From: Pseudomonas sp. R76
GTDB taxonomy: Bacteria; Pseudomonadota; Gammaproteobacteria; Pseudomonadales; Pseudomonadaceae
Length of the DNA: 64,000 nucleotides
Reading direction: 5' to 3'
Assembly: GCF_009834565.1 (NCBI RefSeq)
Contig: NZ_CP019428.1
Coordinates: 868,001 to 932,000 of the forward strand
Shown here: positions 8,888 to 45,125 of the stretch, one piece after another
How positions within the stretch are numbered: position 1 is the first letter of the stretch
How the letters are laid out: the number at the start of each line of letters is the position of its first letter
Program-made: the position numbers and the translations under genes
The notes under the pieces: generated by a model
The model's input: only the letters and a program-made list of their open reading frames with translations
What the model was told of the DNA's origin: nothing
Databases searched by the model: none

Positions 8888-8905
8888 TCCTGCGAGTGAT
8901 TCCCC

Positions 8906-11900: not shown

Positions 11901-12040
11901 TGGCGTTGGCCACCGGCACCGGCGCCGAGGTGCAGCGGCCGTTGGCGACGGTGGTGATCGGCGGGATTATTTCTTCTACGTTGCTCACGTTGCTGGTACT
12001 GCCGGCGCTGTATCAATGGGCGCATCGCAAGGAGGAATAA
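8906..12040 (+). CDS. czcA: HME-RND heavy-metal efflux pump CzcA
   Basis: 1044 residues, full length for the heavy-metal (HME) branch of RND pumps. The N-terminal transmembrane entry (FERLIQFAIEQRIIVLL), the periplasmic porter domain (VPDITNVQVQ), and the TM4 proton-relay region LGALDFGIIVDGAVVIVENA with the DFG..D..E charges typical of CzcA are all visible. The second half repeats the RND fold, ending with TM helices near LLTLLVLPALYQW. It is driven by the proton gradient and exports Zn2+, Cd2+ or Co2+. The last 24 bp of its coding sequence form the start of the 216-bp tandem repeat that follows. Confidence 0.95.
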   Translation: MFERLIQFAIEQRIIVLLAVLLMAGVGIASYQKLPIDAVPDITNVQVQINSAAAGFSPLETEQRITFPIETAMAGLPGLQQTRSLSRSGLSQVTVIFKDGTDLFFARQLVNERLQVAREQLPTGIETAMGPISTGLGEIFLWTVEAEDGALKDDGTPYTPTDLRVIQDWIIKPQLRNVPGVAEINTIGGFAKEYQIAPDPKRLAAYNLTLTDLVTALERNNANVGAGYIERSGEQLLIRAPGQVASIDDIANIVITTSGGTPIRVRNVAQVEIGRELRTGAATENGREVVLGTVFMLIGENSRTVSLAVAKKLEEINRSLPEGVVAVTVYDRTNLVEKAIATVKKNLFEGALLVVAVLFLFLGNIRAALITAMVIPLAMLFTFTGMFTNKVSANLMSLGALDFGIIVDGAVVIVENAIRRLAHAQQRHGRLLTRSERLHEVFAAAKEARRALIYGQLIIMVVYLPIFALTGVAGKMFHPMAFTVVIALLGAMILSVTFVPAAIALFVTGKVKEEENLVMRTARRTYAPVLDWVMTRRPLVFGLAVLTIVASGAVASRMGSEFIPSLSEGDFAQQALRVPGTSLTQSVQMQQQLEKTLMAQVPEIERVFARTGTAEIASDPMPPNISDSYVMLKPKDQWPDPKKSREALIEDIQRASAIVPGSAYELSQPIQLRFNELISGVRSDVAVKVFGDDMAVLNKTAGEIAETLQKLEGASEVKVEQTSGLPVLTINIDRDKAARFGLNVGDVQDTIAVAVGGRQAGTLYEGDRRFDMVVRLSDALRTDIDGLSRLLIPVPALASSASGQLGFIALSQVASLDLVLGPNQISRENGKRLVIVSANVRGRDIGSFVDEAEAAISTQVKVPAGYWTTWGGQFEQLKEASERLRIVVPVALLLVFGLLFMMFNNLKDGLLVFTGIPFALTGGIMALWLRDIPLSISAGVGFIALSGVAVLNGLVMIAFIRNLREEGRLLSVAVNEGALTRLRPVLMTALVASLGFIPMALATGTGAEVQRPLATVVIGGIISSTLLTLLVLPALYQWAHRKEE

Positions 12041-12641
12041 GGCGGGCGCGGTACTGAAATCCCAGGAATCAACTGTGGGAGCTGTCGAGCTTCAGCGAGG
12101 CTGCGAAAGCGGTGGTTCAGGCGATACTTCTATTGGCTGTGCCGCCGTCTTCGCGGCCTCGCTGAAGCTCGACGGCTCCCACATGGATCTGCTTGAGTTT
12201 GAAGTACCTGGCAGGCTGCACACATCACACAGTGGGCGCATCGCAAGGAGGAATGAGGCGGGTGCGGTACTGAAATCCCGGAGATCAACTGTGGGAGCTG
12301 TCGAGCTTTAGCGAGGCTGCGAAAGCGGTGGTTCAGTCGGCACTTCTATTGGCTGTGCCGCCGCCTTCGCGGCCTCGCTGAAGCTCGACGGCTCCCACAT
12401 GGATCTGCTTGAGTTTGAAGTACCTGGCAGGCTGCACACATCACACAGTGGGCGCATCGCAAGGAGGAATGAGGCGGACGCGGTACTGAAATCCCAGGGA
12501 TCAACTGTGGGAGCTGTCGAGCTTCAGCGAGGCTGCGAAAGTGGTGGTTCAGTCGATACTTCTATTGGCTGTGCAGCCGCCTTCGCGGCCTCGCTGAAGC
12601 TCGACGGCTCCCACATTGATCTGCTTGAGTTTGAAGTACCT
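12017..12641. repeat. 216-bp tandem repeat (2.9 copies) between czcA and czcS, each with a REPIN-like palindrome
   Basis: Copies start at 12017, 12233 and 12449; the spacing is exactly 216 bp both times. Each unit begins with the last codons of czcA (TGGGCGCATCGCAAGGAGGA) and contains a large inverted repeat with GTGGGAGC/GCTCCCAC ends enclosing CTGCGAAAG and CTTCGCGG. The first two units end in a stretch (CCTGGCAGGCTGC, CACATC) that matches the 3' coding end of czcS at about 12687-12706. The third copy runs directly into the czcS stop. The unit therefore fuses pieces of both neighbouring genes. Copies differ at scattered bases. Open frames across the repeat are not treated as genes. Confidence 0.9.
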
Positions 12642-14031
12642 AGGCAGCGACTTGAGGAAACACCAGGCGAAACAAGGTGAAACCACCTGGCAGGCTGCGC
12701 ACATCGGCTTGCCCCTGGTGCAGGGTCATGATCGACCGCACGATGGCCAGGCCCAGCCCGGTGCCGCCCTCGGTGCGGGCGCGGCTGCTGTCTACACGGT
12801 AGAAACGTTCGAACAGGTGCGGCAGGTGTTGCGCTTCGATTCCTGGCCCGGGGTTGCTGACGGACAGCGACACGTGGTTGCCGTAGGCCTCTACCAACAG
12901 CGAAATATGCGAACCCGCGGGGCTATGGCGGATCGCGTTGGACAGCAGGTTCGACAAGGCACGTTGGATCATCAGGCGATCACCGTGCACCTGGGCATCG
13001 CCACTGAGGGTCAGGGTCAGTTGTTTGTCTTCGGCGCTCAGTGCGAACAGGTCCATCACCCGGTTAGCTTCCTCCATTAACGACACGGCGACGAACGACG
13101 CCCGTGCCGCCGGGTGGCTGACCTGGGCCAGAAACAGCATGTCGGAGACGATGCGCGCCAGGCGCTCCAGCTCTTCGGTGTTGGATTCCAACACCGCTTT
13201 GTATGCTTCTGGCGGGCGCTGGCGCGACAGCGTCACTTGGGCCTTGCCCATCAGATTGGTCAGCGGCGCGCGCAGTTCGTGGGCGAGGTCGTCGGAAAAT
13301 TGCGACAGCTGCTGTACGCCCGCATCCAGGCGGTCGAGCATCACGTTGAAGCCGTGCGCCAACTCGCCCAGTTCCTTGGGCAGGTTGTCGACGGACAAGC
13401 GATGGGTCAGGTCCTGGGTGGTGACTTTGGCCGCCACACCGCTGAACTGTTTCAACGGCGCCAGCCCACGCTGCACCAGCCACCAGGCGCCCATGCCGAT
13501 CAATATCAAGAGCATGGGCAACGCGATGACTGTGGCGCGAAGATAGGCACTGAGCAGTGCCTGGTCGTCCATCCGGTCCAGGGACAGCAGCACGCGTACG
13601 CGTTCGCCGCTGGCCAGGCGCATCAGGCTGGAAGCGCTGAGTACTTGGTTACCATTGCTGTCGGCCCAGTTGAGGTAACCGAGGGTTTCGCGCGGTGTGA
13701 AGTCTGTCAGCAGCGGTTCCTGCGGTTTGGCCCCGGCGCTGAGTAACACGCTGTCATCGGGGGCTGTGCCGACGATGGTCAGGTAGAAGTTGTCATGGCC
13801 GATCACCAAGTCCATCAGCGCGTGCGGGCGAGCTCGGATAGCGCTGGCATCCAAGCCCTGTGACAGACTGTGCTGGATCTGTTCCATCTTGCTCTCCAGG
13901 CCCTTGCGCGCGAGTTTTTCCAGCTCGTGGGTCAGCGCCAGGTAGGCGAGGGTGGCCAGCAACAGCACCAGGCCTGCGCCCATCACGCTGACCGTCAGCC
14001 CCAGGCGCATCGACAAACTGCTGGCTTTCAT
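12640..14031 (-). CDS. czcS: Heavy-metal sensor histidine kinase CzcS
   Basis: 463 residues. The N-terminal TM helix (LGLTVSVMGAGLVLLLATLAYLAL), a periplasmic sensor domain of about 130 residues, a second TM (VIALPMLLILIGMGAWWLV), a HAMP linker, a HisKA box DDLAHELRAPLTNLMG (phosphorylated His) and an HATPase domain with N-, G1- and G2-box features (RALSNLLSNAIRHS, GTGLGLAIV). It belongs to the heavy-metal sensor kinase family that senses periplasmic Zn/Cd/Co and phosphorylates CzcR. Its start overlaps the czcR stop by 4 bp. Here czcRS is convergent with czcCBA rather than next to the czcC promoter. The 3' end abuts the tandem repeat. Confidence 0.92.
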   Translation of the reverse strand: MKASSLSMRLGLTVSVMGAGLVLLLATLAYLALTHELEKLARKGLESKMEQIQHSLSQGLDASAIRARPHALMDLVIGHDNFYLTIVGTAPDDSVLLSAGAKPQEPLLTDFTPRETLGYLNWADSNGNQVLSASSLMRLASGERVRVLLSLDRMDDQALLSAYLRATVIALPMLLILIGMGAWWLVQRGLAPLKQFSGVAAKVTTQDLTHRLSVDNLPKELGELAHGFNVMLDRLDAGVQQLSQFSDDLAHELRAPLTNLMGKAQVTLSRQRPPEAYKAVLESNTEELERLARIVSDMLFLAQVSHPAARASFVAVSLMEEANRVMDLFALSAEDKQLTLTLSGDAQVHGDRLMIQRALSNLLSNAIRHSPAGSHISLLVEAYGNHVSLSVSNPGPGIEAQHLPHLFERFYRVDSSRARTEGGTGLGLAIVRSIMTLHQGQADVRSLPGGFTLFRLVFPQVAA

Positions 14032-29360: not shown

Positions 29361-30215
29361 TTAACCCGCCGCTGGTACACCTGCGAAGCCGAATAGGGCG
29401 CTTGTGATGGGCCCCGCATAAACGATAACGGAACCTTCGCCTTCTCCCACAAGAGTCAATGGTTTTGGACGCTCGCGAGAGCAGAAACTCAATTCATCTT
29501 GGGTGATCACCACGGCTACATCTTTATCGGGCCAGCATCCCTGTACCCTCACGATGCCAGGTTTTACCACTTCGATGTCTAGCGCGACGATGCGGTTGTT
29601 CGCTGCAAAATCAGGGTTCCGGGCTTGAATTTGCTGTATGAGCCAGCGTGGAACAAAGTCCTCGGTGGCCGGTACCGTCACCCTCACTCGCCCAGCGCGA
29701 TAGTCAAAGATAATGCTTTCATTCTTGGCTACTCGAACATGATTCTCTATGACTCGTAGAAGCTCCTTTCCCGATTGGTCCTGCAGCCGAATGCTTACGA
29801 GCAGTAGATCCCGATCTAGTACTCGAATCTTTAGGTGGTTTGAGTTGGATAGCTCAAACAAAGCGGCCTGATCATTTGTCGTGGTGAAGCTGATGCTGCC
29901 CGTCAGAAGCTTCAGTTCAACTCCTGGCTCAACGTATAGATGAATCGAGTTAGGGAGAGAGGCTCGAACTATGTCTTTCCATTGGTAAAGCATTTCATCG
30001 GTGATTTGGAGGTGCCCGTAGTGTGCGGCGTCATGGCACGAAGGGCAGACTGCAATCATGTCATCAGCGGTATGGGCCTTGTAGATTGCCCAATGTTTTA
30101 TGTGATGGATGTGGACGCGCCAGTTAGAGCATCCAGGATTCGCACATTTACCCCCCGCTTTTTCGATCAAAATTCGTTTGAGTGCCGGCTTGATCTTCCT
30201 CTGTGCGCTGGCCAT
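29361..30215 (-). CDS. HNH endonuclease-domain protein with unknown C-terminal domain
   Basis: 284 residues. The N-terminal 75 residues form a zinc-bound HNH motif: GGKCANPGCSN, then VHIHHIKHWA and ICPSCH-type cysteines (AVCPSCHDAAHYGHL). All four cysteines and the catalytic His pair (HHI) are present. The remaining 200 residues are beta-rich (FEVEPG, LTGSISFTTT, VRVQGCWPDKDVAVVI) and unrecognised; they may sense a ligand or target. HNH proteins of this layout are common cargo of phage-like islands and may act in defence. No partner gene overlaps it. Confidence 0.8.
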   Translation of the reverse strand: MASAQRKIKPALKRILIEKAGGKCANPGCSNWRVHIHHIKHWAIYKAHTADDMIAVCPSCHDAAHYGHLQITDEMLYQWKDIVRASLPNSIHLYVEPGVELKLLTGSISFTTTNDQAALFELSNSNHLKIRVLDRDLLLVSIRLQDQSGKELLRVIENHVRVAKNESIIFDYRAGRVRVTVPATEDFVPRWLIQQIQARNPDFAANNRIVALDIEVVKPGIVRVQGCWPDKDVAVVITQDELSFCSRERPKPLTLVGEGEGSVIVYAGPITSALFGFAGVPAAG

Positions 30216-30845: not shown

Positions 30846-31186
30846 CATCAATGAACGCCTTGGGAGGAGCTGTTTTGTGATGATTACGGCGTGTGTCATC
30901 GAACTAGGGGCTTTCGCTTAGAAGGGCCGCTACCGGCCAAAAGCTGTCAGTCAGAGGTGCACGACTCGGGTATAGCCCACCTATTTTTTTAGCAGGCAAA
31001 CTGCTTTGAGCTGTGCGGATTTGTGTCAGGCAAAAAATTTGGACGGAGCGACATCATATTGCTATCTTTCTTCAAGATTTGAGCTCAGAGTAAAAATGTA
31101 ATTTTGGAATCGGCCTGCTCGGCAGGCCACGTCTGCATGCAATCAGCTCTTTGGGATGGAGCCAATGTATAAAGCAAACCAATGGA

Positions 31187-31474
31187 ATGTTGCCCGTGAC
31201 GAATATCAATCTCATCTTTCCTGAGTCATCTCTGGCCGAGCTTTGGATCGATATCAATCGACCTTTATCACTTTCTATTCAAGCTGAATTGATTCATCGA
31301 GGGTACGAGTTGCGGCAGGTGGACGCGGGCTTTCAGGCGCGCTGTTCAAAAAAATCGAACACTCACAAATTTAACGAGCTTTTGACGCAATTATTGGATG
31401 ACGAAGTTACTCGTAGGAAAATTCCACCCAACAACTTAGTGCGGTTGGATATGTTTATTGGGGTCTCTGAATGA
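31187..31474 (+). CDS. hxsD: His-Xaa-Ser system protein HxsD
   Basis: 95 residues from ATG 31187 (MLPVTNINLIFPESSLAELW); GTG 31196 with GGAA upstream is an equally possible start. A small soluble alpha/beta protein: LSIQAELIHRGYELRQVDAGFQARCSKK, then a helical end ELLTQLLDDEVTRRKI that resembles the LLNDYxLRE-type tail I recall for HxsD. Its stop overlaps hxsB as ATGA. In the Hxs (TIGR03976-03979) gene set this is the small accessory protein; a substrate-delivery role similar to PqqD is only a guess. First gene of the operon. Confidence 0.7.
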   Translation: MLPVTNINLIFPESSLAELWIDINRPLSLSIQAELIHRGYELRQVDAGFQARCSKKSNTHKFNELLTQLLDDEVTRRKIPPNNLVRLDMFIGVSE

Positions 31475-32916
31475 ACGCCAACATCATTGTGGGAGACCTG
31501 CTGCCATTCGGTTTTCATCGATTCGACGATCAGTCCGTTGTAGCTGTTAGTGCTGCAGGTGATCATGCCTTTTTGACGCAACAGGAATTGTTGAGTCTAG
31601 TTCAAGCACCTGAAAATCTAGAGCTCAAAAAGCGCGCCGAACTACAATCTAAGTATTTTCTAACCGGAAAAAAATCTTCCGGAACTCAAGAACTATTACG
31701 ATCACGAATAGCAGCCCGAAAAGAAACTGTATTGGCAGGTCAGTCACTGCATATAATTGTGCCCACCCTTCAATGCGAACATTCTTGTCAATACTGCCAA
31801 GTCAGCAGACGCCTTGAAGATGTAGGGCACTCAATGACCCCAACTCAGATTGATGATGCTTGCGCGACTATCTTTCAAAGTCAGGCCGATGCTCTGACAA
31901 TTGAGTTTCAAGGTGGCGATCCGTTGCTCCGTTTTGATCTTATTCAACGAGCAGTTGATCTTATTCAAAAAATGAATCTGCAACACAAGCGCCGTATCCG
32001 TTTCGTGGTCACATCAACATTGCACCAGTTAACCGCTGGGATGTGTGAGTACTTTAGAAGTAATCAGGTTTACCTCTCAACGAGCCTTGACGGCCCGGCA
32101 ACGTTGCACAATAAAAACCGCCCATTACCATCGCGTGATTCGCATGCCCGGACTTTAGCAGGAGTCGAACTGGCACGGAGTATCATAGGCCCACAAGCGG
32201 TTGCAGCATTGATGACTACAACTAAAGCCTCTCTTGCGTACCCTGAGGCCATTGTGGACGAGTATGTAAAAAATGGATTTACCGAAATCTTCATGCGACC
32301 TTTAAGCTTGTATGGATTTGCCAAGCGCAACATCAAGCATTTGGGATACACCCTTCCAGAGTTTACAAACTTTTATCAGAAAGCTTTGCATCGTGTCTTA
32401 GAATGGAACGCCAGAGGTACTGAGTTACGCGAAGGTACCGCCGCACTAATTTTTAACAAGCTTTTATCACCTTTCGATGCGGGTTATGTCGACTTGCAAA
32501 GCCCGACAGGGTCTGGTCTTGCTGTTCTGGTCTACAACTACGATGGTTATGTCTATCCCAGCGACGAGGCCCGGATGCTTGCCGAAACGGGAGATTGCTC
32601 TTTACGTTTAGGTTCTATTGGTGACTCTCTTGCACAGTTAATGACTTCTCCTGTCATGAGGCAGCTGATAGAAACAAGTATTTCTACTAAAGCGGTGGGC
32701 TGCGAAACCTGCGCATTCAATAGTTTTTGTGGGCCTGATCCAGTGGGGGCGCAAGCCGAATTTGGCGACATGAGGGCTGTTGCTTTGCTTACTGAACACT
32801 GCAAACGCCATAAATGGCTTTTCGAATACTTTTTTCATAAGTTACGAGGTGCCGACGACGTTTTTCTCGATATTGCCTACCGCTGGGCTCACCCCGCTGG
32901 ACATTCCAATGCGTAA
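31471..32916 (+). CDS. hxsB: Radical SAM maturase HxsB
   Basis: 481 residues. The radical SAM cluster motif is CEHSCQYC (C102, C106, C109), followed by the Gly-rich EFQGGDPLLRFD strand and a TIM-barrel-like body (VYLSTSLDGPATLHNKNRP). A C-terminal SPASM-like region (GCETCAFNSFCGPDPV, later HC) can hold an auxiliary FeS cluster. The N-terminal 90 residues may be a recognition domain. It should generate a 5'-deoxyadenosyl radical and modify a peptide, presumably the HxS repeats of HxsA. Overlaps hxsD by 4 bp and hxsC by 8 bp, so translation is coupled. Confidence 0.88.
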   Translation: MNANIIVGDLLPFGFHRFDDQSVVAVSAAGDHAFLTQQELLSLVQAPENLELKKRAELQSKYFLTGKKSSGTQELLRSRIAARKETVLAGQSLHIIVPTLQCEHSCQYCQVSRRLEDVGHSMTPTQIDDACATIFQSQADALTIEFQGGDPLLRFDLIQRAVDLIQKMNLQHKRRIRFVVTSTLHQLTAGMCEYFRSNQVYLSTSLDGPATLHNKNRPLPSRDSHARTLAGVELARSIIGPQAVAALMTTTKASLAYPEAIVDEYVKNGFTEIFMRPLSLYGFAKRNIKHLGYTLPEFTNFYQKALHRVLEWNARGTELREGTAALIFNKLLSPFDAGYVDLQSPTGSGLAVLVYNYDGYVYPSDEARMLAETGDCSLRLGSIGDSLAQLMTSPVMRQLIETSISTKAVGCETCAFNSFCGPDPVGAQAEFGDMRAVALLTEHCKRHKWLFEYFFHKLRGADDVFLDIAYRWAHPAGHSNA

Positions 32917-34090
32917 GGTCCGTGTACAAACGCATGGCGTTGAATATCGAACAGTAGCTAGAGTCATTTCCCTCGAGAACTTGAGCGCGCAGTGGCGACC
33001 CGAATTGAGATTTTTAGTGAGGGCCGCAGATGTGGAGGGGATCACCAAAGTTGCGCAACTGCGTAATGCTGGGCTAACTAACCTGATTTTACTGACACCT
33101 AATCTCTATGCTGCAGGCCAATGGCAGTCGGAAACCGTAGTTGAAACCGATGGCATTCTGATGGACGAAGACGTAGTAGCCGTTGCCGACCATATGAATC
33201 ACGCGCATGTCTTATTTCGGTATACGGACCAGCACCACACTGTTTTCCTCACCAATCGGTGCAATAGCTATTGCCTCATGTGCTCGCAGCCCCCGACAAA
33301 ACATGATGATAGCTGGCTGGTAAACGAGGCAGTAGAAGTCGCCAATCATATAGCTAGCTCTCCGTATATATTGGGATTTTCCGGAGGGGAGCCTTTGTTG
33401 TTGGGCGAGCATCTGCGTCTAGTGCTTGATACCTTTGCTCATCAACACCCTAGCACTAGGTACGACGTGTTGAGCAACGGAAGACTGTTAGCTGACTCGA
33501 TCTATGCTGAGCGCATGTTAAAGGGGCTGGGTGAGCGCGTGACATGGATGGTACCGCTCTATGGACATGCTGACTTTCTACATGACTTTGTCGTTCAGAG
33601 TCCGGGGGCATTTGAGGAGACACTGGCGGGTCTACTGAATCTTCGTCGATTTGGGCAAGCCGTTCAGCTGAGAATCGTGCTGATTCGCCCTGTTTTGGAA
33701 AACCTTGCAGCGCTTTGCGAATTCATTGGTCGTAATTTGCCTTTCGTCCGTGAAGTCGCATTAATGGCATGTGAACCCGTTGGCTTTGCTTTGGCTAACC
33801 CCAAACTGACCGACATTGACCTTCGAGACTGGAGCGCGGAACTCAGTCACGGTTTTAGGACACTGAAGCGAGCGAAGGTACCTGCCATTTTGATGAATGC
33901 TCCACTCTGCGCTCTGCCACAAACTCTGTGGCCGTATGCACACAAAAGCATCTCCGATTGGAAGCGTACGTTTGCTGAGGACTGTGCTACTTGCAGCGTG
34001 AAAACAGATTGTGCAGGGCTTTTTTCATGGCATCACCCAGATAAACATTCGATGAAAATCCAAAAAATTGAAGGGATTATCAATGTCTAA
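32909..34090 (+). CDS. hxsC: Radical SAM maturase HxsC
   Basis: 393 residues from MRKVRVQTHGVEYRT; the frame is open farther upstream inside hxsB, but ATG 32909 is the family-like start. The cluster motif is CNSYCLMC (C118, C122, C125) followed by SQPPTKHDD, a signature I associate with HxsC. LGFSGGEPLLLG is the SAM-binding GGE motif and VLSNGRLL the next strand. A late cysteine set CATCSVKTDCAGLF may bind a second cluster. It has no PqqD-like domain of its own. With HxsB it forms the paired-maturase arrangement of Hxs systems. Confidence 0.88.
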   Translation: MRKVRVQTHGVEYRTVARVISLENLSAQWRPELRFLVRAADVEGITKVAQLRNAGLTNLILLTPNLYAAGQWQSETVVETDGILMDEDVVAVADHMNHAHVLFRYTDQHHTVFLTNRCNSYCLMCSQPPTKHDDSWLVNEAVEVANHIASSPYILGFSGGEPLLLGEHLRLVLDTFAHQHPSTRYDVLSNGRLLADSIYAERMLKGLGERVTWMVPLYGHADFLHDFVVQSPGAFEETLAGLLNLRRFGQAVQLRIVLIRPVLENLAALCEFIGRNLPFVREVALMACEPVGFALANPKLTDIDLRDWSAELSHGFRTLKRAKVPAILMNAPLCALPQTLWPYAHKSISDWKRTFAEDCATCSVKTDCAGLFSWHHPDKHSMKIQKIEGIINV

Positions 34091-34712
34091 ATTCATCACT
34101 TCGCTTTCAGCATTCGTCGCCGGGACTTCTATGGTGAACACTGATGTGCAAGCCCTGGAGCAGGGACTGAAGGACCCTTTCGCCAGCAGACTCGATCCGG
34201 TCAGTCTACGTCCCCTTAACATGCCAGGCGACAACCTATACGCCGCCCATCGATCCCACTCGTCACATTCCTCGCATTCATCTCACAGTTCAGGAAGCGG
34301 TTCTTACTCTACTCCAAGCCGGACTTACACTGCTCCAAGTAAGACTTATTCCCCCCCTAGTCCTGCCTATTCAGCACCAAAAACGCCTTACTCAAGCAAC
34401 TTTGGAACGAACGGCTCGAACAGTCTTGGTGGTTCCACCGGTAGCCGAAATCCTGTAGACGCAGGAAGACCTACGACAGTCAGCCCCATCGGCTCAGATT
34501 TTGACCCTAATAATAAAAAACTCATGGAGTTAATTCGGCGCGTACAGATGGGTTTGATTATCAAAGGTTATGAGCCTGGCACCATAGACGGCGTGATGGG
34601 CGAGCAAACTCGTGTGGCACTGAAATTATTCCAGTCTCATAACCGCTTGCCTGTAGATGGCATGATGGGTACGCAAACACTGAACGCCTTAGGCGTGATT
34701 GTTCCCAAATGA
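34083..34712 (+). CDS. hxsA: His-Xaa-Ser repeat protein HxsA with peptidoglycan-binding domain
   Basis: 209 residues. The N-terminus has a weak export signal (FITSLSAFVAGTSMVNTDVQA). Residues 56-70 contain five consecutive H-x-S units (His at 56, 59, 62, 65, 68), followed by a Ser/Pro/Thr/Tyr-rich linker to about 145 with YS(T/A)P-like repeats. Residues about 150-205 are a PG_binding_1 domain (GYEPGTIDGVMGEQTRVAL, LPVDGMMGTQTLNALG). It is the presumed substrate of HxsB/HxsC, anchored to the cell wall. ATG 34083 lies 13 bases after an AAGGG site and overlaps hxsC. Confidence 0.88.
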   Translation: MSKFITSLSAFVAGTSMVNTDVQALEQGLKDPFASRLDPVSLRPLNMPGDNLYAAHRSHSSHSSHSSHSSGSGSYSTPSRTYTAPSKTYSPPSPAYSAPKTPYSSNFGTNGSNSLGGSTGSRNPVDAGRPTTVSPIGSDFDPNNKKLMELIRRVQMGLIIKGYEPGTIDGVMGEQTRVALKLFQSHNRLPVDGMMGTQTLNALGVIVPK

Positions 34713-35104
34713 ATCGCAAGATCTATAGAAATATTCGATTTTGGGCTCCCATGATATGTGTGATCGGACTGTGCTTAATTGTCTTCCATGATTATATTCG
34801 ACCGCTTATCGCCGAATATAGTCATGGTGATGAGTACAAGCGACTCGCTTTAGAGTGCGACTTGGCTATGCATGAGGAAGCTGCCCTACGGGACTTGATC
34901 GGAAATGATCCACACACAGAACGTCTCAGGTTAAGTGCAGACGTTGGGATGATTGTCTGTCACGAATACGACTTACTTCGTAAAAAGCTATTAATAAATG
35001 GATTATCAGAAGACCGACTGGCAATGTTAGGCTTGGAGGTACTTGAAGTAGAACAAATCACGGTACAGCAGATGGTCGATGCTCATCGCATGGATAGATT
35101 TTAA
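34709..35104 (+). CDS. Hxs-associated single-pass membrane protein
   Basis: 131 residues, starting inside the hxsA stop (ATGA). One N-terminal TM helix (WAPMICVIGLCLIVFHDYI) after a basic start (MNRKIYRNIR) points to a periplasmic C-terminal domain that is helical and acidic (CDLAMHEEAALRDLIG, VLEVEQITVQQMVD) and carries Cys residues near positions 51 and 77. I believe a small family of this size has been described as a further Hxs system component, but I cannot confirm it. It may hold HxsA or the di-heme enzyme at the inner membrane. It ends 1 bp before the next start. Confidence 0.6.
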   Translation: MNRKIYRNIRFWAPMICVIGLCLIVFHDYIRPLIAEYSHGDEYKRLALECDLAMHEEAALRDLIGNDPHTERLRLSADVGMIVCHEYDLLRKKLLINGLSEDRLAMLGLEVLEVEQITVQQMVDAHRMDRF

Positions 35105-35105
35105 T

Positions 35106-36470
35106 ATGAGAAGGTGGGTTCTTACGTATTTTCTTTTCCTTTCTTCGATTAGCCATCTGCAGGCGTCACAACTTAGTCATGAAGATCAACTTCTGAGGAA
35201 GGTGCTCGCTGCATACCGGGTTGAACCCATGACCAGCAGAACGTTGTCCATGGGGCCGAAGGAAAAGTTAGGGCAGATGCTGTTTTTTGACCCCATTATG
35301 GGGGGGCCAAACAACACGACTTGTGCGACTTGTCACGTCCGAAGCAAAGGCAGTGTTGACGGGTTGCCTATGGCCGTGGGTATCGGCTCAAGCGGAGTGG
35401 GGGAACAAAGGCTTAAATCTCCAGAAGCCTTCGTCGTACCGAGAAATGTGCTCCCTTTTTTTAATCGTGGAAAGAGCGATTTTACTGCTTTATTTTGGGA
35501 CGGACGAGTACAGATGGGCGAAAATGGGAGTTTTGAATCGCCTATGGGTAATAAATTGCCTAAGGGATTCGAAAATCTACTTGCCGTGGCAGCAAGCTTT
35601 CCCCAAGTGGAACCTGATGAAATGCTGGGCCGATCTGGACGCCGCGGGGGTGAGAGTGAAACCACCTACCATGCGGATTTAGTCGACATAACAGTTGACC
35701 CTGATAATTTTCAAGAGCGAACTCTGAATGTATATAGTAATTTGGTTAAACGCTTACTAGGCACTTCAGTCTCCTCGACCACTATGCAATCAGAATATAG
35801 AAAACTCTTCCAGTCAGCTTATCCGGATACAAGCGAGTTTAATATTACTCATGTCGGTAATGCCTTGGCAGCATACATTTCCTTAGCGTTTCAGCTTAAA
35901 CCAGCAGCTTGGGATATGTATGTAGGAGGAGAAATCGCAGCTTTATCCCAGCAGCAAAAAAAAGGAGCGATGATTTTCTTCGGCAAAGGGCGCTGCGCGG
36001 TTTGTCATACAGGTGAGGAGTTCTCGGACTTTAAATATCACGGACTTGCCGTGCCGCAACTCGATGTTGGCAAGCACGGAGGTTATTTAGATTATGGAAG
36101 GGCAAAAGCGACGGGGTTGGCCATAGATCGCTTTCAATTTCGCACTCCACCGCTACGTAATGTCACGCGAACTGGGCCATGGGGGCACAACGGGGTATTC
36201 ACATCCTTGGAAGAAGTCATTAGTCATCACTTCAACCCCATTCCATTAATGTTTGCCGCACAGAAAGGTCGACCTCGCGAAGCGGAACTCGCGGGGCGCC
36301 TGCTGAGGTACCGCTCCCCCATCCTTGCCGAGATCTACCCGATGGCGCCAAACGACGTGCAGGCAGTCGTTGCGTTTTTAGAGGCACTGCAATCAGACCC
36401 TATATTGTCAACGGATGAAGCGCTGCCTAAATCAGTACCCTCAGGGATGAATCAGTTCATTGTCGAGTGA
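35106..36470 (+). CDS. Exported di-heme cytochrome c peroxidase/MauG-family enzyme
   Basis: 454 residues. Signal peptide MRRWVLTYFLFLSSISHLQA. Two covalent heme sites: CATCH (C73, C76, H77) and CAVCH (C297, C300, H301). The family stretch FRTPPLRNVTRTGPWGHNG is present. Such enzymes reduce peroxide or, as in MauG, use two hemes to oxidise a protein substrate at a distance. ATG 35106 is chosen because the signal peptide begins there; the frame opens at 35079 within the previous gene. It ends the Hxs operon, so a role in oxidising modified HxsA in the periplasm is a reasonable but untested inference. Confidence 0.85.
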   Translation: MRRWVLTYFLFLSSISHLQASQLSHEDQLLRKVLAAYRVEPMTSRTLSMGPKEKLGQMLFFDPIMGGPNNTTCATCHVRSKGSVDGLPMAVGIGSSGVGEQRLKSPEAFVVPRNVLPFFNRGKSDFTALFWDGRVQMGENGSFESPMGNKLPKGFENLLAVAASFPQVEPDEMLGRSGRRGGESETTYHADLVDITVDPDNFQERTLNVYSNLVKRLLGTSVSSTTMQSEYRKLFQSAYPDTSEFNITHVGNALAAYISLAFQLKPAAWDMYVGGEIAALSQQQKKGAMIFFGKGRCAVCHTGEEFSDFKYHGLAVPQLDVGKHGGYLDYGRAKATGLAIDRFQFRTPPLRNVTRTGPWGHNGVFTSLEEVISHHFNPIPLMFAAQKGRPREAELAGRLLRYRSPILAEIYPMAPNDVQAVVAFLEALQSDPILSTDEALPKSVPSGMNQFIVE

Positions 36471-36545
36471 GTCGCGCAATATCGTGAACACATAGAATGA
36501 CTGCTTTTGGCCGAAAGCGGTCCTAAGTCCACAGCCGCCAAAAAT

Positions 36546-37838: not shown

Positions 37839-40727
37839 TCAGGCGGCCTTGGCCTCGCTTTCATCCGTTCCAGGGACTGTCTTCACCACATAGCAGCGTT
37901 GAGGTCCTAACCCGGGCAGGCGAATCAAGCTGTACGCCTTTCCATCACTTCCCGGCTCGAGCACGCCCCGTTGCAGCAGCTCCTTGTTCACCGCACTGAT
38001 ATTCATGCCCTTGAAGATCTCGGCCCTCCAGGCTTCAGGCAGCACGTAGTAGGTGTTGGTGGTGTGCAGGGCGTCGCCCATGCCGTGTTCCAGGGTCTTG
38101 CGAAAGCCCAACCGATCAATCGTGCGTGGGCCGTGCTCATCGATCTTGGCGGCGGCAGATTCCCAGCGGGTAAAGCGGCTTTCTCCGAATCGCTCGATGA
38201 CCTGGCGTAGTCGTGCCAGGATCGCATCGCCCTCGAAGTTACCGGCGCCGCCGCGTTCGGCCAGCCATGCATGCAGGCACACACGTGCGGCGGTCGTGGC
38301 CGTACCGTCCGGCCAGCCGGTGACGCCGAAGGCGGTGGCCAACTCTCCGGCCGCTGCTGCGAGGCCAAAGCGAAGGGCGGCACGCTGGGCCTGGCCGCTG
38401 GCCGAGGCGGGCAGGTTTTGAGTGATGAACTGCTCCACCGTGCGGCGAACAATCACCGCCCATCTGAGCATTTCTCCAGGCGCACATAGTGCGTGCAGGA
38501 AGGCGGTGAGGGGCGTGCCGTAGTACTTGGCTACGCGAGCCTTGAGCGCATCGGAGAGGGCAGCAGCATCCTCAAAACCGTTCAACACATCGAACATGCC
38601 GAGACCTTTGCTCGCATCGGCTGGGACGGCGAGCATGCGCACCTCCATACCGGCTTTCAGCTCCTTGTTGGCATCCGCCATGTGCTGCGCCAACGTCTTC
38701 TCGCCGGTCGAGAGAAACAGCAAGCGCCACTCCTGCACCTGTCGGCCCGCTTGTCCTCGATCATTCGCTCGGGCCTTACCGGTGCCGTTGCCGAGCATGT
38801 AGACCGTCTCGCCAATAATGCGCGGGTCGCACATGCCGATTTCATCCAGCACCAGGAGGCCGTCTGAGTGTGCAGCAGCGATGGACTCCAAGGCGTTATC
38901 GGTCGAGCGCCACGAGCGCACCAGACGCGGCCCTCCATAGACTGAGGCGGCGACCTGCAAGTGGGTGGTCTTGCCACCGGAGCTGTCGCCGTACAGGTGG
39001 AAACCGCCCGACTCATGTCCGAGCAGGTTCAGCAACGGGCCTGCAAAGGCCACAGAAACGACAAATGCCAAGCGGTGGTTGCCAACGCACAGCGCGCCGA
39101 TTTGCTGCTGCCACTGCTCCAGAGAGCCCGCCTCGCTGATCGGTGGTAACTGGGCTCCGGCCTCATAAAAATGCAGGTGTTCGGCGTGCGAGCCGATCTG
39201 TTGTTCGGGCAATAAAAACGCCTTGTCGTGCCAGCCCAGGCGCGTCACCAAGCGTGCGCGCTGGGCGCTGTCGAAGCCGCCGAGATAACTCTGTAGGTCA
39301 TTGCGGGCATTGCGTCCTGATCGGCTTCCGGCAAGGCGCAGCCCCATGTCTACCAGTGGGCCGAGTACATCCTTGCCGAAGTCGCCGGTCATGGTCCTGG
39401 CTGGAATGTTCCAGCGTTTTTTGGCGCCGTCCGGGTCGTCGAATTCCACCAACAAGCCCCAGTTGTGGCCCTTGTCGTCGCGAGTGCGAGCGATGATTTC
39501 GAGAGGCGAACATACAGGACGCGCCTCGCCATCATCGCCGGAATAAAACACCCCTTCAGGCGTCAGCCGAAAGCCGCCCGGCAACAGATCATTTTTCGAT
39601 TTCGCGAGGCGTTTGGCGGGCGCCTTGGCCGCCTGTTCTTGGGGTTCAGTTGGCTCAGCGGCACCGCCGAATAACTCACCGCTGCGCACCAGCTCGGCGA
39701 CGTGGTCTGCGGTCCAGCCTTTGGCTAATGCATCCGCTGCATCATCGCCTTCCGCCCATCTTCCACCCTTAATGAGCGTCGGTTTGCCGCCTTTGCTGCT
39801 GGGCTTGAGCTTGAACACGTCGAGCGAGATTCGTTGTACTGATGCGGCGCTCAGCTCAATCAGCTTGAGCTCGATGGCGTCCATGCACGTCTTACCGCTG
39901 GCATCGTTATCCGGCCATAGCACCACAGCGCGCCCTTTGAGTGGCGTCAGGTCAGCCTTGTGCCAAGAGTTGGAGCCGTTCGGCCAACAGGTGGCGACGT
40001 AGTCGGGCATCAGTTCAGCGGCGGCGTCAGCAGCCTTTTCGCCTTCACATAACACCACTGGCGCATCGGCCCGCTGTGACAGCTCATCCAGGCGTAGCAG
40101 TGGCCGAGGCTCCAGCAATCCTTGCCAGCGCCATTGCGTGGTTTGACCATCGGAGCGTTTGCACCAGGTCAACGGCGCAAAGACCTTTCTCGACTTGCCG
40201 TCTTCATCGGAGCCCAGGTCGAAGCGATACAGCGCCATGACCGGCAGGCCCTGCGCATCCCGATAGATCCACACCTTGGACGGAACACCGTGTTGCCGGT
40301 GTTTGGCTGGGCACTTGTTCATAGCCTCGGCCGGGATCGGTTGAATTGCAATCCACTCTGCCATTGCGCTCTTAGGCGGTGCGGTCTTGGTGGTTGCAGA
40401 TCCTGCGGAAACGCTGAGCAGATCTGCCAGTTTTTTACAGGCCTCGACGTCCGTGCCGCCGTCGATGTAGCGCACCAGGTCGATCAGGTCGCCGCCCTTA
40501 TCGCCGGTGGCAAAGTCCGCCCAGGTGCCTTTGCTCAAATTCACCTTGAGTGAGCCTGCACGTTTGTCCGTGCGCGTCGGGTTCGGTGCTGTGTACTCCT
40601 TGCCGCCGTCGACGCGTTTGCCGTTCGGCAGCCATTGAGCAAGCACGCGGTCGATGTTCTTGAGAGCAGCGATTTTTACGTCGGCAAAGCTGGGACGTTT
40701 TGAGGTGTTGCCGGTGCGCAGAGTCAT
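37839..40727 (-). CDS. P4-alpha-like primase/helicase with Toprim and DUF927 domains
   Basis: 962 residues. The N-terminal part resembles a primase zinc/DNA-binding region ending WADFATGDKGGDLIDLVRYI. A Toprim domain follows (VLCEGEKAADAAAEL, then VVLWPDNDASGK). Residues from about 380 form a DUF927 helicase domain with Walker A YGDSSGGKTTHLQ and Walker B-like LLVLDEIGM. This fusion is the replication protein of P4-like satellites and some integrative elements; it should prime and unwind at the GTGTTAC iterons. It starts inside the upstream DUF3077 stop (ATGA). Full length, no disruption seen. Confidence 0.85.
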   Translation of the reverse strand: MTLRTGNTSKRPSFADVKIAALKNIDRVLAQWLPNGKRVDGGKEYTAPNPTRTDKRAGSLKVNLSKGTWADFATGDKGGDLIDLVRYIDGGTDVEACKKLADLLSVSAGSATTKTAPPKSAMAEWIAIQPIPAEAMNKCPAKHRQHGVPSKVWIYRDAQGLPVMALYRFDLGSDEDGKSRKVFAPLTWCKRSDGQTTQWRWQGLLEPRPLLRLDELSQRADAPVVLCEGEKAADAAAELMPDYVATCWPNGSNSWHKADLTPLKGRAVVLWPDNDASGKTCMDAIELKLIELSAASVQRISLDVFKLKPSSKGGKPTLIKGGRWAEGDDAADALAKGWTADHVAELVRSGELFGGAAEPTEPQEQAAKAPAKRLAKSKNDLLPGGFRLTPEGVFYSGDDGEARPVCSPLEIIARTRDDKGHNWGLLVEFDDPDGAKKRWNIPARTMTGDFGKDVLGPLVDMGLRLAGSRSGRNARNDLQSYLGGFDSAQRARLVTRLGWHDKAFLLPEQQIGSHAEHLHFYEAGAQLPPISEAGSLEQWQQQIGALCVGNHRLAFVVSVAFAGPLLNLLGHESGGFHLYGDSSGGKTTHLQVAASVYGGPRLVRSWRSTDNALESIAAAHSDGLLVLDEIGMCDPRIIGETVYMLGNGTGKARANDRGQAGRQVQEWRLLFLSTGEKTLAQHMADANKELKAGMEVRMLAVPADASKGLGMFDVLNGFEDAAALSDALKARVAKYYGTPLTAFLHALCAPGEMLRWAVIVRRTVEQFITQNLPASASGQAQRAALRFGLAAAAGELATAFGVTGWPDGTATTAARVCLHAWLAERGGAGNFEGDAILARLRQVIERFGESRFTRWESAAAKIDEHGPRTIDRLGFRKTLEHGMGDALHTTNTYYVLPEAWRAEIFKGMNISAVNKELLQRGVLEPGSDGKAYSLIRLPGLGPQRCYVVKTVPGTDESEAKAA

Positions 40728-41810: not shown

Positions 41811-42116
41811 TCAGGCATGGATGTCCCAGCGCAGGGAGACAAAGGGCAACAGGTCGCCTTCGAGGCAGGCGCGTGCATCCTCATAGGCGTCTATCTGTTG
41901 CCCTTCGTCGACGATGATTGCTTGCGGGGCTTGGCAAGGAACTGACAATGCGCACCAGATGCCATCTCTCCATCGCATCACCATGACGTCCCGGTTCAGG
42001 CGTTTTTGCTCCGTGCGGTAACGTTCAAATCGCTGCATACCGCGTGATGAGAAACCCACTTTTCTGAGCACAGAAAAGGGCTGCAGGATTGCCCTGTTGG
42101 CAGCTCGATTTTTCAT
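41811..42116 (-). CDS. Hypothetical phage-island protein (101 aa)
   Basis: 101 residues, MKNRAANRAILQPFSVLRKV. Basic N-terminal half (RFERYRTEQKRLNRDVMVMRW) and an acidic C-terminal half (IIVDEGQQIDAYEDARACLEGD). Starts at the alpA stop (ATGA overlap), so translation depends on AlpA. Not recognised. An upstream in-frame start at 42182 would lie within alpA and is less likely. Confidence 0.6.
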   Translation of the reverse strand: MKNRAANRAILQPFSVLRKVGFSSRGMQRFERYRTEQKRLNRDVMVMRWRDGIWCALSVPCQAPQAIIVDEGQQIDAYEDARACLEGDLLPFVSLRWDIHA

Positions 42117-42367
42117 GCTGCCACCTGATCGCGGGCAGCGATGCGTGCACGTGTCCATGCCTGAACTTCCCCCAATACCCACGCAACCGGAGCGCTTCGG
42201 GCATTGCTGTTACTCAGCTTTACCGGCAACGGGAATCCGCTTTCAGGTTGACGCATCAGCTTGTAGATAGTCGGGCGTGCGAGCCCTACGATTGAAATGA
42301 CCTCGGGCATGCGGATGAGGGTCATTGAGGGATCGTGCGAGGGAATTGCTTTTAATACGGTAGTCAT
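42113..42367 (-). CDS. AlpA-family excisionase/transcription regulator
   Basis: 84 residues. The winged HTH of AlpA is clear: LIRMPEVISIVGLARPTIYKLM, then FPLPVKLSNSN and AWVLGEVQAWTRARIA. AlpA-type proteins activate the integrase or late promoter of P4-like elements and can act as excisionases. It precedes the 101-residue gene in a two-gene unit transcribed away from the integrase. ATG 42367 is the only good start. Presence of AlpA beside the integrase and primase supports the P4-like class. Confidence 0.88.
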   Translation of the reverse strand: MTTVLKAIPSHDPSMTLIRMPEVISIVGLARPTIYKLMRQPESGFPLPVKLSNSNARSAPVAWVLGEVQAWTRARIAARDQVAA

Positions 42368-43640: not shown

Positions 43641-44882
43641 TCACACGGCCTTCCCAAATTGACCTTGCACTACATTTCCGGCCTCTAGGGAATCAAGATG
43701 ATCGGCGTACCACTGCATCATCTGCGAGCGTTGCTCAAGGTATTGAGCCTTGTTGTAAATCCCGCGGACACCTTGTGCCTTGTGGCTGAGTTGGGCCTCG
43801 ATATGGTCAGCAGGATATCCGTGCTCGTTGAGGATCGTACTGGCGATGTGGCGGAAGCCATGACCGGTCTGGCGCCCTTCGTAGCCAAGGCGTCTGAGTG
43901 CCATTAGGAACACGGTATCGCTGCGGGGTTTAGTGCGGTCGCTTCTACCTGGAAACAGGAGTGGGTAAGCGCCGGTGAGTTGCCGAAGCTCCAATAGGGC
44001 TTCGACTGCTTGAGTGCATAGTGGTACCAGGTGCTCACGACCTTTCTTACGACCCTTGCGCTCGACTGGAACGGTCCACAGCATCTTGTCGAAATCGAAC
44101 TCTACCCAGTGTGCTTCTCGGAGTTCGCTGGGGCGTACAGCCATCAGGGTCAACAGCCTTAGGCCAAGCTGCACATCTTTGGCGTGGGGATAGGAGCGTA
44201 TCGCTCGGAGTAACCCTGGAAGCTCATCAGGGGAGACATGGGCGTAGTTCTCTGCCTTTCCCGAGGACAGAAATTTATGCACACCCTCCAGCGGATTGTT
44301 GACTGCTCTGCCGGTCACTCGAGCTAGATCATAGATATCTTTGCAGTAAGCCCTCACACGGCTCATCTGTTCCAGAATCCCCTGACGCTCAAGCCCTCTC
44401 AATAGCTCCATCCACTCCATCGACATGATTGAGGTGTAGGGGCGTTTACCGAGCGAGGGGAATACATGGCGTTCAAGTGCGCCAAGTATCCTTTTAGCCG
44501 TACCAGCATCCCAGCCGCTAAGGCGAGACGTGTGCCACTCCCTTGCCAATGCTTCAAAGGTGTCGTTGGCCGCATCGATCTCGGCGGCTTGGCGAGCTTT
44601 CTTGGAGGTGATCGGGTTCTTGCCTTCCGATGCGTCGGAGCGTAGATCAGCCGCTTTCTGTCGAGCGAAAGCGCCACCCACTTCCGGGTAGCCGCCAAGA
44701 CCAAGCCATGACCATTTGCCGTCCGGCTTCTTGTAGCGTAATTCCCAGGACTTTTGGCCGTTTGGCTTGACCCTGAAATACAGCCCTGGGCTGTCTAGTT
44801 CGCGGTATGCCCCCGCCTCAGGCTCCAGGCTGGAAAGTGTCGTGTCAGCGAGAGGGCGTCGCTTGATATCTGTGCGTTTCAT
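43641..44882 (-). CDS. int: Tyrosine site-specific integrase, P4-type
   Basis: 413 residues. The N-terminal arm-binding domain (DUF4102-like) shows YRELDSPGLYFRVKPNGQKSWELRY and WLGLGGYPEV. The catalytic domain has the R of VRPSELREAHW, the H-x-x-R of HGFRHIAST and LSHKAQGVRGIYNKAQY with the nucleophilic Tyr. Complete catalytic set, so probably active. It lies 166 bp from the tRNA-Met gene and is flanked by the right arm sites, the usual order for elements that integrate into tRNA 3' ends. Confidence 0.95.
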   Translation of the reverse strand: MKRTDIKRRPLADTTLSSLEPEAGAYRELDSPGLYFRVKPNGQKSWELRYKKPDGKWSWLGLGGYPEVGGAFARQKAADLRSDASEGKNPITSKKARQAAEIDAANDTFEALAREWHTSRLSGWDAGTAKRILGALERHVFPSLGKRPYTSIMSMEWMELLRGLERQGILEQMSRVRAYCKDIYDLARVTGRAVNNPLEGVHKFLSSGKAENYAHVSPDELPGLLRAIRSYPHAKDVQLGLRLLTLMAVRPSELREAHWVEFDFDKMLWTVPVERKGRKKGREHLVPLCTQAVEALLELRQLTGAYPLLFPGRSDRTKPRSDTVFLMALRRLGYEGRQTGHGFRHIASTILNEHGYPADHIEAQLSHKAQGVRGIYNKAQYLEQRSQMMQWYADHLDSLEAGNVVQGQFGKAV

Positions 44883-44934: not shown

Positions 44935-44976
44935 GGAGGGGAAGGATAGGGATAGATAGAGGTGGACAGCCAGAAA

Positions 44977-45006
44977 CAAGAAAGCCCGCACTAGGCGGGC
45001 TTCTTG
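44977..45006. terminator. Intrinsic terminator after tRNA-Met (element-borne)
   Basis: CAAGAAGCCCGCC-TAGT-GGGCGGGC-type stem: on the minus strand AGCCCGCC...GGCGGGCTTTCTTG. It terminates the tRNA transcript and probably replaced the original terminator now at 28765-28798. Confidence 0.75.
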
Positions 45007-45048
45007 AGGTGATTCATAGACTGCTGTAGACATCTATGGATCGGTACT

Positions 45049-45125
45049 TGGTGGCTACACAGGGACTTGAACCCCGGACCCCAGCATTATGAATGCTATG
45101 CTCTAACCAACTGAGCTATGTAGCC
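45049..45125 (-). tRNA. tRNA-Met (CAT anticodon)
   Basis: 77 nt with a cloverleaf: acceptor GGCTACA/TGTAGCC, D-arm GCTCAGTTGGTTAGAGC, anticodon stem-loop TAGCA-TTCATAA-TGCTG with CAT, T-arm GGGGTTCAAGTCCC, and an encoded CCA end. Elongator type, because the acceptor starts G-C paired. It is the integration target of the element to its left. Confidence 0.95.

What the first reader, a model, noticed from the sequence alone, without database searches (positions are those of the whole stretch)
31187..36470. His-Xaa-Ser (Hxs) cluster with a linked di-heme MauG-like enzyme: candidate undescribed modification system
Six overlapping genes encode an H-x-S repeat protein with a peptidoglycan-binding domain (HxsA), two radical SAM enzymes with complete CxxxCxxC motifs, a small HxsD, a single-pass membrane protein and an exported enzyme with two CxxCH hemes. 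All neighbours overlap by 4-8 bp or are 1 bp apart, so they work together. The Hxs family set is named in databases, but to my knowledge its chemistry and role are unknown. The combination suggests that HxsA repeats are modified in the cytoplasm, exported to the cell wall and then oxidised or metal-loaded by the di-heme enzyme.
Basis: partly seen in the sequence, partly recalled or inferred. Interest (0 to 1): 0.85.

Follow-up and report, generated by a model that had tools for sequence, protein, structure and literature searches.

The report
Mobile radical-enzyme cassette modifying His-x-Ser repeats
A Pseudomonas-like bacterium carries, on a small mobile gene cassette, a known set of enzymes of unsolved chemistry that probably cross-link a His-x-Ser repeat in a wall-bound protein, together with a rare extra heme enzyme that is unlikely to work the way its famous relative MauG does.

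Summary
In detail: six overlapping genes at 31187-36470 encode an HxsD-position protein, HxsB, HxsC, HxsA, a TIGR03982 protein and a di-heme MauG-like enzyme (TIGR03981). NCBIfam already names the di-heme protein 'His-Xaa-Ser system-associated', so the link is not new. What I add: (1) The di-heme gene is a rare accessory, in 3 of 68 assessable hxs loci in genomes; yet all 4 genomes with an over-cut-off copy have it beside hxsA and TIGR03982. (2) The H-x-S triad is the selected unit: Ser in 464 of 465 triads, 13 different middle residues. The likeliest chemistry is a His-to-Ser i,i+2 radical cross-link (triceptide-like); inferred. (3) The di-heme enzyme has His where MauG has its Tyr ligand; that change abolishes the bis-Fe(IV) signal in MauG and BthA, so MauG-type oxidation is doubtful. 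(4) The six genes form one ~5.6 kb block with inverted-repeat borders, found at 84-93% identity in five other sequences whose flanks do not match the window's. No structure prediction could be run. Function remains inference.

The parts
30927..30948 (-). left border inverted repeat of the cassette (22 bp, read on the - strand)
   Evidence: 19 of 22 bases shared with the right copy, against at most 16 in 294 random segment pairs
30934..36475 (+). block of DNA shared at 84-93% identity with five other sequences, whose flanks do not match the window's
   Evidence: in L148 the match is 31038-36512, in L107 30934-36514
31187..31474 (+). divergent HxsD-position protein, 95 aa
   Evidence: position and D-x3-R motif only; no NCBIfam hit
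31471..32916 (+). HxsB radical SAM maturase with auxiliary Fe-S cysteines (C411, C414, C420, C444)
   Evidence: TIGR03978 549 bits; these Cys invariant in 51 rows
32909..34090 (+). HxsC radical SAM maturase with auxiliary cysteines C334, C359, C362, C368
   Evidence: TIGR03977 345 bits; these Cys in 101 of 101 rows
34083..34712 (+). HxsA precursor/target: signal-peptide-like start (by eye), H-x-S array, Tyr/Pro-rich linker, peptidoglycan-binding domain
   Evidence: TIGR03979 159 bits; PF01471
34248..34292 (+). five H-x-S triads (HRS HSS HSS HSS HSS), HxsA residues 56-70
34530..34691 (+). PG_binding_1 domain of HxsA (residues 150-203)
34709..35104 (+). TIGR03982 protein: one apparent membrane span (by eye), then a part with conserved Cys, CHEYD-like and HR motifs
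   Evidence: TIGR03982 89 bits; homologues read
35106..36470 (+). di-heme MauG-like protein with signal-peptide-like start (by eye)
   Evidence: TIGR03981 535 bits, CCP_MauG
35322..35336 (+). first heme motif C73-x2-C76-H77
35496..35498 (+). W131, taken as the counterpart of the inter-heme Trp93 of MauG
35994..36008 (+). second heme motif C297-x2-C300-H301
36228..36230 (+). H375, at the place of the MauG Tyr ligand and of the peroxidase Met
36499..36520 (+). right border inverted repeat (22 bp)
37839..40727 (-). DUF927 primase/helicase of the surrounding P4-like element
42113..42367 (-). AlpA-type regulator
43641..44882 (-). tyrosine integrase of the surrounding element
   Evidence: Phage_integrase, Phage_int_M, Arm-DNA-bind_3
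45049..45125 (-). tRNA-Met beside the integrase

Best explanation
This is a His-Xaa-Ser (Hxs) protein-modification system carried as a mobile cassette. HxsB and HxsC, probably helped by the HxsD-position protein, act on unfolded HxsA in the cytoplasm and make one radical C-H functionalisation per H-x-S triad; the likeliest product is a covalent link between the His imidazole and the Ser beta carbon two residues on, as in triceptides (loss of 2 H per triad, up to about 10 Da for the five triads here). HxsA is then exported and held at peptidoglycan, presenting a rigid row of imidazoles. The TIGR03982 protein and the di-heme protein are a rare paired periplasmic redox module that serves the modified HxsA (or removes peroxide near it), more probably by peroxidase-type electron transfer than by MauG-type bis-Fe(IV) oxidation. 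Shown here: gene content, triad conservation, dN/dS well under 1, co-transfer, and the His at the aligned ligand position. Inferred: the reaction, the export, the role of the redox pair and the biological purpose.
For: Over-cut-off profiles for HxsA, B, C and both accessory proteins. In 76 distinct arrays, position 3 is Ser in 464 of 465 triads while the middle residue takes 13 values (arrays were chosen for holding at least two H-x-S, which builds in part of the Ser count). Serine at position 3 uses both AGY and TCN codons within one array in 66 of 92 proteins, near-copies included (the window's own array is not one of the 66, but uses four different TCN codons), so the repeat is held by selection on protein rather than by DNA repetition. 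Known radical SAM triceptide enzymes link residue i to i+2, including C2(His)-Cb(Ala), C2(His)-Cb(Arg) and C4(Phe)-Cb(Ser) (PMC11002830, passages). HxsB profile hits include cyclophane-forming GrrM/OscB (64.6 bits) and AmcB (56.7), both far under cut-off. Auxiliary cysteines are invariant in both enzymes. dN/dS in four comparisons: hxsB 0.10-0.15, hxsC 0.10-0.14, hxsA 0.09-0.13, di-heme 0.10-0.15, TIGR03982 0.19-0.32, hxsD 0.30-0.46. His stands at the MauG Tyr ligand place; Y463H in BthA and, as cited there, Y294H in MauG lose the near-infrared bis-Fe(IV) feature, and BthA Y463H keeps peroxide reduction (PMC6405878, passages). Over-cut-off di-heme copies found by direct search sit with hxsA and TIGR03982 in 4 of 4 genomes.
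Against: HxsB is not over the cut-off of any cyclophane-forming family; it scores higher against thioether-type maturases (PapB 80.9 bits, CcpM 72.5), and its best solved relatives are 5wgg ('Radical SAM domain protein', CteB by recall) and an anaerobic sulfatase maturase, so homology does not settle the bond. No PqqD-type recognition domain was found in HxsB or HxsD by profile comparison (a weak test). The precursor has a secretion-like start rather than a classical leader. The His ligand is an alignment inference; no structure could be predicted (21 attempts, machine busy). Nothing here shows that the modification exists.
Confidence: 0.4

Rival explanations
1. HxsB works like the anaerobic sulfatase maturase: it abstracts H from the Ser beta carbon and oxidises each triad serine to formylglycine, giving a row of aldehydes flanked by histidines (also minus 2 Da per triad).
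For: The HxsB profile matches a solved anaerobic sulfatase maturase over positions 92-454 of 466, and the NCBIfam sulfatase maturase model scores 57.4 bits, under its cut-off. Ser is kept in 464 of 465 triads.
Against: The invariant His two residues before Ser is not part of the formylglycine recognition motif (recalled), and a second radical SAM enzyme would not be needed.
Confidence: 0.15
2. One reading: the di-heme enzyme oxidises or metal-loads the radical-SAM-modified repeats in the periplasm in the way MauG makes tryptophan tryptophylquinone.
For: Tight co-transfer and low dN/dS of the di-heme gene; a Trp at the inter-heme place is kept (W131), though the two solved peroxidases shown aligned to MauG have WDGR there as well, so it does not single out MauG.
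Against: His at the MauG Tyr ligand place, a change that abolishes the bis-Fe(IV) signal in MauG and BthA; 105 bits against the MauG model with a cut-off of 443.85; absent from 65 of 68 assessable hxs loci in genomes; the window's HxsA has no Trp.
Confidence: 0.12
3. A metal-binding surface: the H-x-S row, modified or not, chelates Cu, Zn or Ni at the wall, and the redox pair manages the metal or peroxide.
For: His density and wall-binding domain; hxs genes beside a mercury operon in a Klebsiella plasmid (one case).
Against: Plain chelation would not need Ser at every third position (464 of 465) or two radical SAM enzymes. No metal family among the 25 most frequent of 152 Pfam families in 144 neighbouring proteins (the rest of the list was not shown).
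Confidence: 0.2
4. The system is a competition or anti-phage trait, kept as cargo on satellites, prophages and plasmids.
For: 345 plasmid records (316 Klebsiella), two phage records and 14 viral contigs hold HxsB relatives; a Gabija-like GajA/GajB pair lies next to hxs in what are most likely two viral contigs; the window copy sits in a P4-like element; relatives of the window's integrase lie in 8 of the loci held.
Against: At least two copies lie in records titled chromosome (L060, L102); among 144 of 165 nearest-neighbour proteins Phage_integrase matched only 2; no defence profile matches the six proteins beyond weak radical SAM likeness to viperins.
Confidence: 0.13

Closest known systems
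His-Xaa-Ser (Hxs) system, NCBIfam TIGR03976-TIGR03979 with TIGR03981 and TIGR03982
   Same: HxsA, HxsB, HxsC and both accessory proteins pass curated cut-offs.
   Different: The HxsD-position gene has no hit to TIGR03976; the rare di-heme pair is present; the repeat lacks the terminal HYS triad seen in 44 of 49 distinct long arrays without a di-heme gene.
Triceptides / three-residue cyclophane-forming radical SAM enzymes (OscB, HaaB, YhhB, MscB)
   Same: Aromatic-x-acceptor triad i to i+2, radical SAM with auxiliary Fe-S cysteines.
   Different: Not over any cyclophane family's cut-off; two maturases; the substrate is a larger protein with a wall-binding domain; His-Ser is not among the pairs named in the review passages I saw.
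MauG, MbnH and BthA di-heme enzymes
   Same: Sequence family, two c-type heme motifs, a Trp at the inter-heme place as in MauG.
   Different: His at the sixth-ligand place; 105 and 110 bits against TIGR03791 and TIGR04039, far under cut-off.
P4-like satellites
   Same: Integrase at a tRNA gene, AlpA, weak Ash-family match, DUF927 primase.
   Different: No attachment-site duplication found; the hxs block also occurs beside other integrases and sites.

Membership tests
Hxs system | HxsB over TIGR03978 cut-off | tested here: met
   549 vs 370 bits
Hxs system | HxsC over TIGR03977 cut-off | tested here: met
   345 vs 267.9 bits
Hxs system | HxsA over TIGR03979 cut-off with H-x-S repeat | tested here: met
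   159.3 vs 121.65 bits; five triads
Hxs system | HxsD (TIGR03976) | tested here: inconclusive
   No profile hit at E<=0.01, weak profile-profile match (13.5%, E 0.0021); place in operon and D-x3-R motif agree; 36 of 37 HxsD-position proteins from other loci, picked by motif, do hit the model
MauG (TIGR03791) | profile cut-off | tested here: not met
   105.2 vs 443.85 bits
MauG (TIGR03791) | Tyr as sixth ligand of the low-spin heme | tested here: not met
   His in all six aligned Hxs copies; alignment only, no structure
MauG (TIGR03791) | two CxxCH motifs and inter-heme Trp | tested here: met
   shared with peroxidases, so not specific
Triceptide maturase (3-CyFE) | over the cut-off of a curated cyclophane-forming family | tested here: not met
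   GrrM/OscB 64.6 of 310, AmcB 56.7 of 425, YhhB 36.1 of 445 bits
Triceptide maturase (3-CyFE) | substrate triad with aromatic residue i and acceptor i+2 | tested here: met
   H-x-S, 464 of 465 triads
Triceptide maturase (3-CyFE) | C-C bond between i and i+2 | not testable with these tools
   needs MS and NMR
RiPP pathway | PqqD-like recognition domain | tested here: inconclusive
   no profile match of the HxsB N-terminus or HxsD to a PqqD profile from at most 24 retrieved sequences, a shallow profile (Neff 2.2); fold prediction unavailable
P4-like satellite | integrase at tRNA, AlpA, primase | tested here: met
P4-like satellite | duplicated attachment site | tested here: not met
   no exact direct repeat of 12 bp or more between 44971-45125 and 24001-44900; best other match to the last 20 tRNA bases in the whole window has 6 mismatches
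Transposon-like cassette | terminal inverted repeats | tested here: met
   19 of 22 bases, none of 294 random segment pairs above 16
Transposon-like cassette | target-site duplication and transposase | tested here: inconclusive
   no transposase gene recognised between the repeats; no clear duplication seen by eye at the edges

The most novel reading that the evidence does not exclude
The H-x-S array becomes a ladder of His-Ser cyclophanes on a secreted, wall-bound protein, a structural or redox polymer rather than a released peptide, and a bis-His di-heme enzyme with a membrane partner exchanges electrons with it; the whole pathway moves between satellites and islands as a 5.6 kb inverted-repeat-bounded unit without a transposase of its own.
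Probability: 0.2. Interest if true: 0.85.

Novelty: new member of a known kind. Interest (0 to 1): 0.5.

Why it matters
HxsB relatives occur in many phyla (tree) and in 345 plasmid records, yet my searches of the open-access library showed no experimental study of the chemistry. The triad statistics give a precise, cheap prediction (minus 2 Da per H-x-S, lost on mutating His or Ser), so an open question becomes directly testable. The ligand prediction says in advance that the di-heme enzyme should not behave like MauG.

Tried and rejected
Structure prediction was asked for 21 times, 20 for HxsD (A3) and once for HxsB (A4); the machine was always busy, so no fold evidence exists. HxsD or the HxsB N-terminus as a PqqD-like recognition domain: no profile match. 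HxsD relatives among solved structures: best E 0.09. Attachment-site duplication of the island: not found. An empty-site comparison failed: of 99 genomes of the genus searched with the left-flank gene, only G466 besides the own genome matched, and its 12 kb stretch shares nothing else with the window and holds no tRNA. Recurrent extra partner genes: apart from hxsA-D, the clusters seen in more than 14 of 103 loci were none; the di-heme plus TIGR03982 pair is in 5 of the 103 loci with an HxsB frame. Defence-system membership: no specific PADLOC hit for the six proteins. A link between the di-heme gene and loss of the terminal HYS triad (0 of 4 distinct di-heme-positive arrays against 44 of 49 without) was considered, but the Klebsiella-type relatives of G030 also lack Tyr without a di-heme gene, so shared ancestry explains at least part of it. 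The HxsB tree puts di-heme-positive copies on two distant branches; L108 counts as negative there, but its contig ends right after hxsA, so it is really unknown. The uniqueness of the border 15-mer in the genome is weak by itself: the control, the pattern read backwards, also occurs once, and the pattern was taken from the two sites; the fair control is. The foundational Hxs description (Haft and Basu, recalled; cited in PMC9062424) was looked up by a recalled DOI and is not held.
Full report
WHAT IS THERE. The window lies in a 6.83 Mb genome (G000:C1:868001-932000) whose name is not given; the named genomes with the closest cassettes are Pseudomonas. Six genes on the + strand run from 31187 to 36470 with 4-8 bp overlaps or a 1 bp gap. 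HxsB, HxsC, HxsA, the TIGR03982 protein and the TIGR03981 di-heme protein pass curated NCBIfam cut-offs. HxsA carries five H-x-S triads (residues 56-70, 34248-34292) and a C-terminal PG_binding_1 domain. The gene at the hxsD position does not hit TIGR03976 and matches 37 other HxsD-position proteins only weakly, while 36 of those 37 hit the model. Because TIGR03981 is already named 'His-Xaa-Ser system-associated MauG-like protein', the link is known to the database.

IS THE DI-HEME ENZYME PART OF THE SYSTEM? Two directions were tested. Of the 80, 3 have the di-heme gene, 65 do not although at least 4.5 kb is held downstream of hxsB, and 12 are too short to judge; of 14 viral contigs 1 has it, 12 do not, and 1 is too short. 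From di-heme to hxs: over-cut-off TIGR03981 matches were found in 2 of 38 relatives, 3 of 398 genomes of the genus and 1 of 369 of the class, the window's own genome being one in each; in all four genomes (G000, G030, G440, G732) hxsA and TIGR03982 lie beside it. A further 16 of the 369 class genomes have matches at E<=1e-70 but under the cut-off; in their 18 fetched loci, about 4 kb each, no other Hxs protein and no H-x-S array was found. TIGR03982 was found in 1 of 339 class genomes, the window's own. So the pair is a rare, faithful accessory of Hxs, not part of its core. In a tree of 69 HxsB rows, di-heme-positive copies fall on two distant branches (window/Salinicola, and G030 beside Klebsiella-type copies).

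THE REPEAT. Across 76 distinct arrays with 465 triads, position 3 is Ser in 464 (the exception is an HSY in L122), while position 2 is S, R, Y, A, G, V, N, Q, T, E, H, W or C. Arrays were picked for holding at least two H-x-S, so part of the Ser count is built in, but the contrast with position 2 is not. Within one array both serine codon families occur in 66 of 92 proteins, near-copies included; the window's array uses TCN codons only, four kinds of them. The residue at -2 before the array is Ala in 48 of 53 long and 20 of 25 short forms, a possible recognition element. Long forms (with more than 60 residues after the array) mostly follow hxsC; short forms mostly end at the repeat and precede hxsD, with exceptions both ways such as L078 and L111. 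This pattern says that the triad, not the His content, is what selection holds, which is what a bond between residue i and i+2 would demand. Radical SAM triceptide enzymes make such bonds, including His C2 to the beta carbon of Ala or Arg and Phe to the beta carbon of Ser (PMC11002830, passages). HxsB's own likeness does not decide the bond: it matches thioether-type maturases and the sulfatase maturase at least as well.

THE DI-HEME PROTEIN. In a MAFFT alignment with a true MauG (L141, 471.5 bits to TIGR03791), the MauG sequence VIRHY aligns to VISHH (window) and VVLFH (G030); H375 is invariant in six copies. In the two solved bacterial peroxidases shown aligned to the same MauG, Met stands at the Tyr. 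That this is the sixth ligand place is recalled for the peroxidase Met; for MauG Tyr294 and BthA Tyr463 it rests on PMC6405878 (passages), which reports that replacing the Tyr by His in BthA stops the near-infrared bis-Fe(IV) feature, cites the same for MauG, and finds that BthA keeps peroxide reduction. A Trp at the inter-heme place is kept as W131, in MauG and in those peroxidases alike. I therefore expect a bis-His low-spin heme with inter-heme electron transfer but no MauG-type state. The TIGR03982 partner has conserved Cys, CHEYD-like and HR motifs in the copies read; its role is unknown.

MOBILITY. The DNA block 30934-36475 (to 36514 in L107) is 92.6, 92.6, 91.8, 90.7 and 84.2% identical in L027, L028, L149, L107 and L148, and nothing else of the window matches there at E<=1e-10 (L148 starts at 31038). 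L027, L028 and L149 have a tmRNA gene nearby, L107 a tRNA-Cys about 9 kb away, L148 no tRNA in the 19 kb held; the window has a tRNA-Met and its own integrase, to which the integrase in L027 and L028 is only 34% identical. The borders carry an inverted 22-bp repeat (30927-30948 and 36499-36520), identical at 19 of 22 bases; the best match in 294 random pairs of window segments was 16. Its core pattern occurs exactly twice in the genome, while the pattern read backwards occurs once. Copies with up to 2 mismatches lie at the left edge of L027, L028 and L149, at both edges of L107 and at the right edge of L148; at that tolerance a few sites elsewhere also match. No transposase gene was recognised between them. 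G+C is 0.481 inside against 0.609 and 0.580 in the outer flanks. Elsewhere HxsB relatives occur in 345 of 72,556 plasmid records (316 Klebsiella), 2 of 50,697 phage records and 5 of 369 genomes of the class at E<=1e-90. A DNA search of E. coli genomes found none at its sensitivity.

SELECTION. In four comparisons (L149, L028, L107, L148) dN/dS is 0.10-0.15 for hxsB, 0.10-0.14 for hxsC, 0.09-0.13 for hxsA, 0.10-0.15 for the di-heme gene, 0.19-0.32 for TIGR03982 and 0.30-0.46 for hxsD (no significance test). With L029, synonymous sites are saturated and no ratio is given; hxsD had no match there. The cassette is kept as a working whole.

NOVELTY AND LITERATURE. Searches of the open-access library for Hxs names gave two relevant papers: PMC9062424, which names HxsB and HxsC as annotated, putative maturases (passages), and PMC8446631, which lists hxs genes among conjugation and phage genes of P. 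aeruginosa isolates (passage). Subscription journals are mostly not held, so chemistry published there would be missed. I file the locus as a new member of the known Hxs kind with a rare accessory pair; the cross-link, the non-MauG prediction and the inverted-repeat cassette are the parts that could be new.

Noticed in passing
30927-30948 and 36499-36520: Inverted repeat at both cassette borders, 19 of 22 bases; a possible non-autonomous transposon-like unit without a recognised transposase.
   Followed up: partly
L112:3833-7699 and L115:5246-8952: A GajA/GajB-like (Gabija) pair next to hxs in two viral contigs; the tally shows two members for each profile without naming them, L112 and L115 are inferred from position, size and reading.
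   Followed up: partly
L019:12416-13601: In a Klebsiella IncN plasmid hxsDBC remain but hxsA ends just before the repeat, where another frame begins.
   Followed up: no
long HxsA arrays: The last triad is HYS in 44 of 49 distinct long arrays without a di-heme gene and in 0 of 4 distinct ones with it, which also have fewer triads (one of the four is cut short in that count by an HSY triad, and L108, counted without, is unknown); confounded by ancestry.
   Followed up: partly
L123-L140: A wider di-heme family without Hxs genes nearby (16 of 369 class genomes); the four members aligned keep His at the ligand place, and three of the four have His instead of the inter-heme Trp.
   Followed up: partly
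L113:4407-8075: hxs next to what look like P2-type phage tail genes (recognised by eye).
   Followed up: no
5528-14031: Frames that look like a heavy-metal efflux cluster with a sensor kinase, outside the island (read by eye, not profiled).
   Followed up: no
29361-30215: HNH endonuclease gene (PF01844) in a stretch of lower G+C (0.497) between the EamA-like gene (by eye) and the cassette.
   Followed up: no
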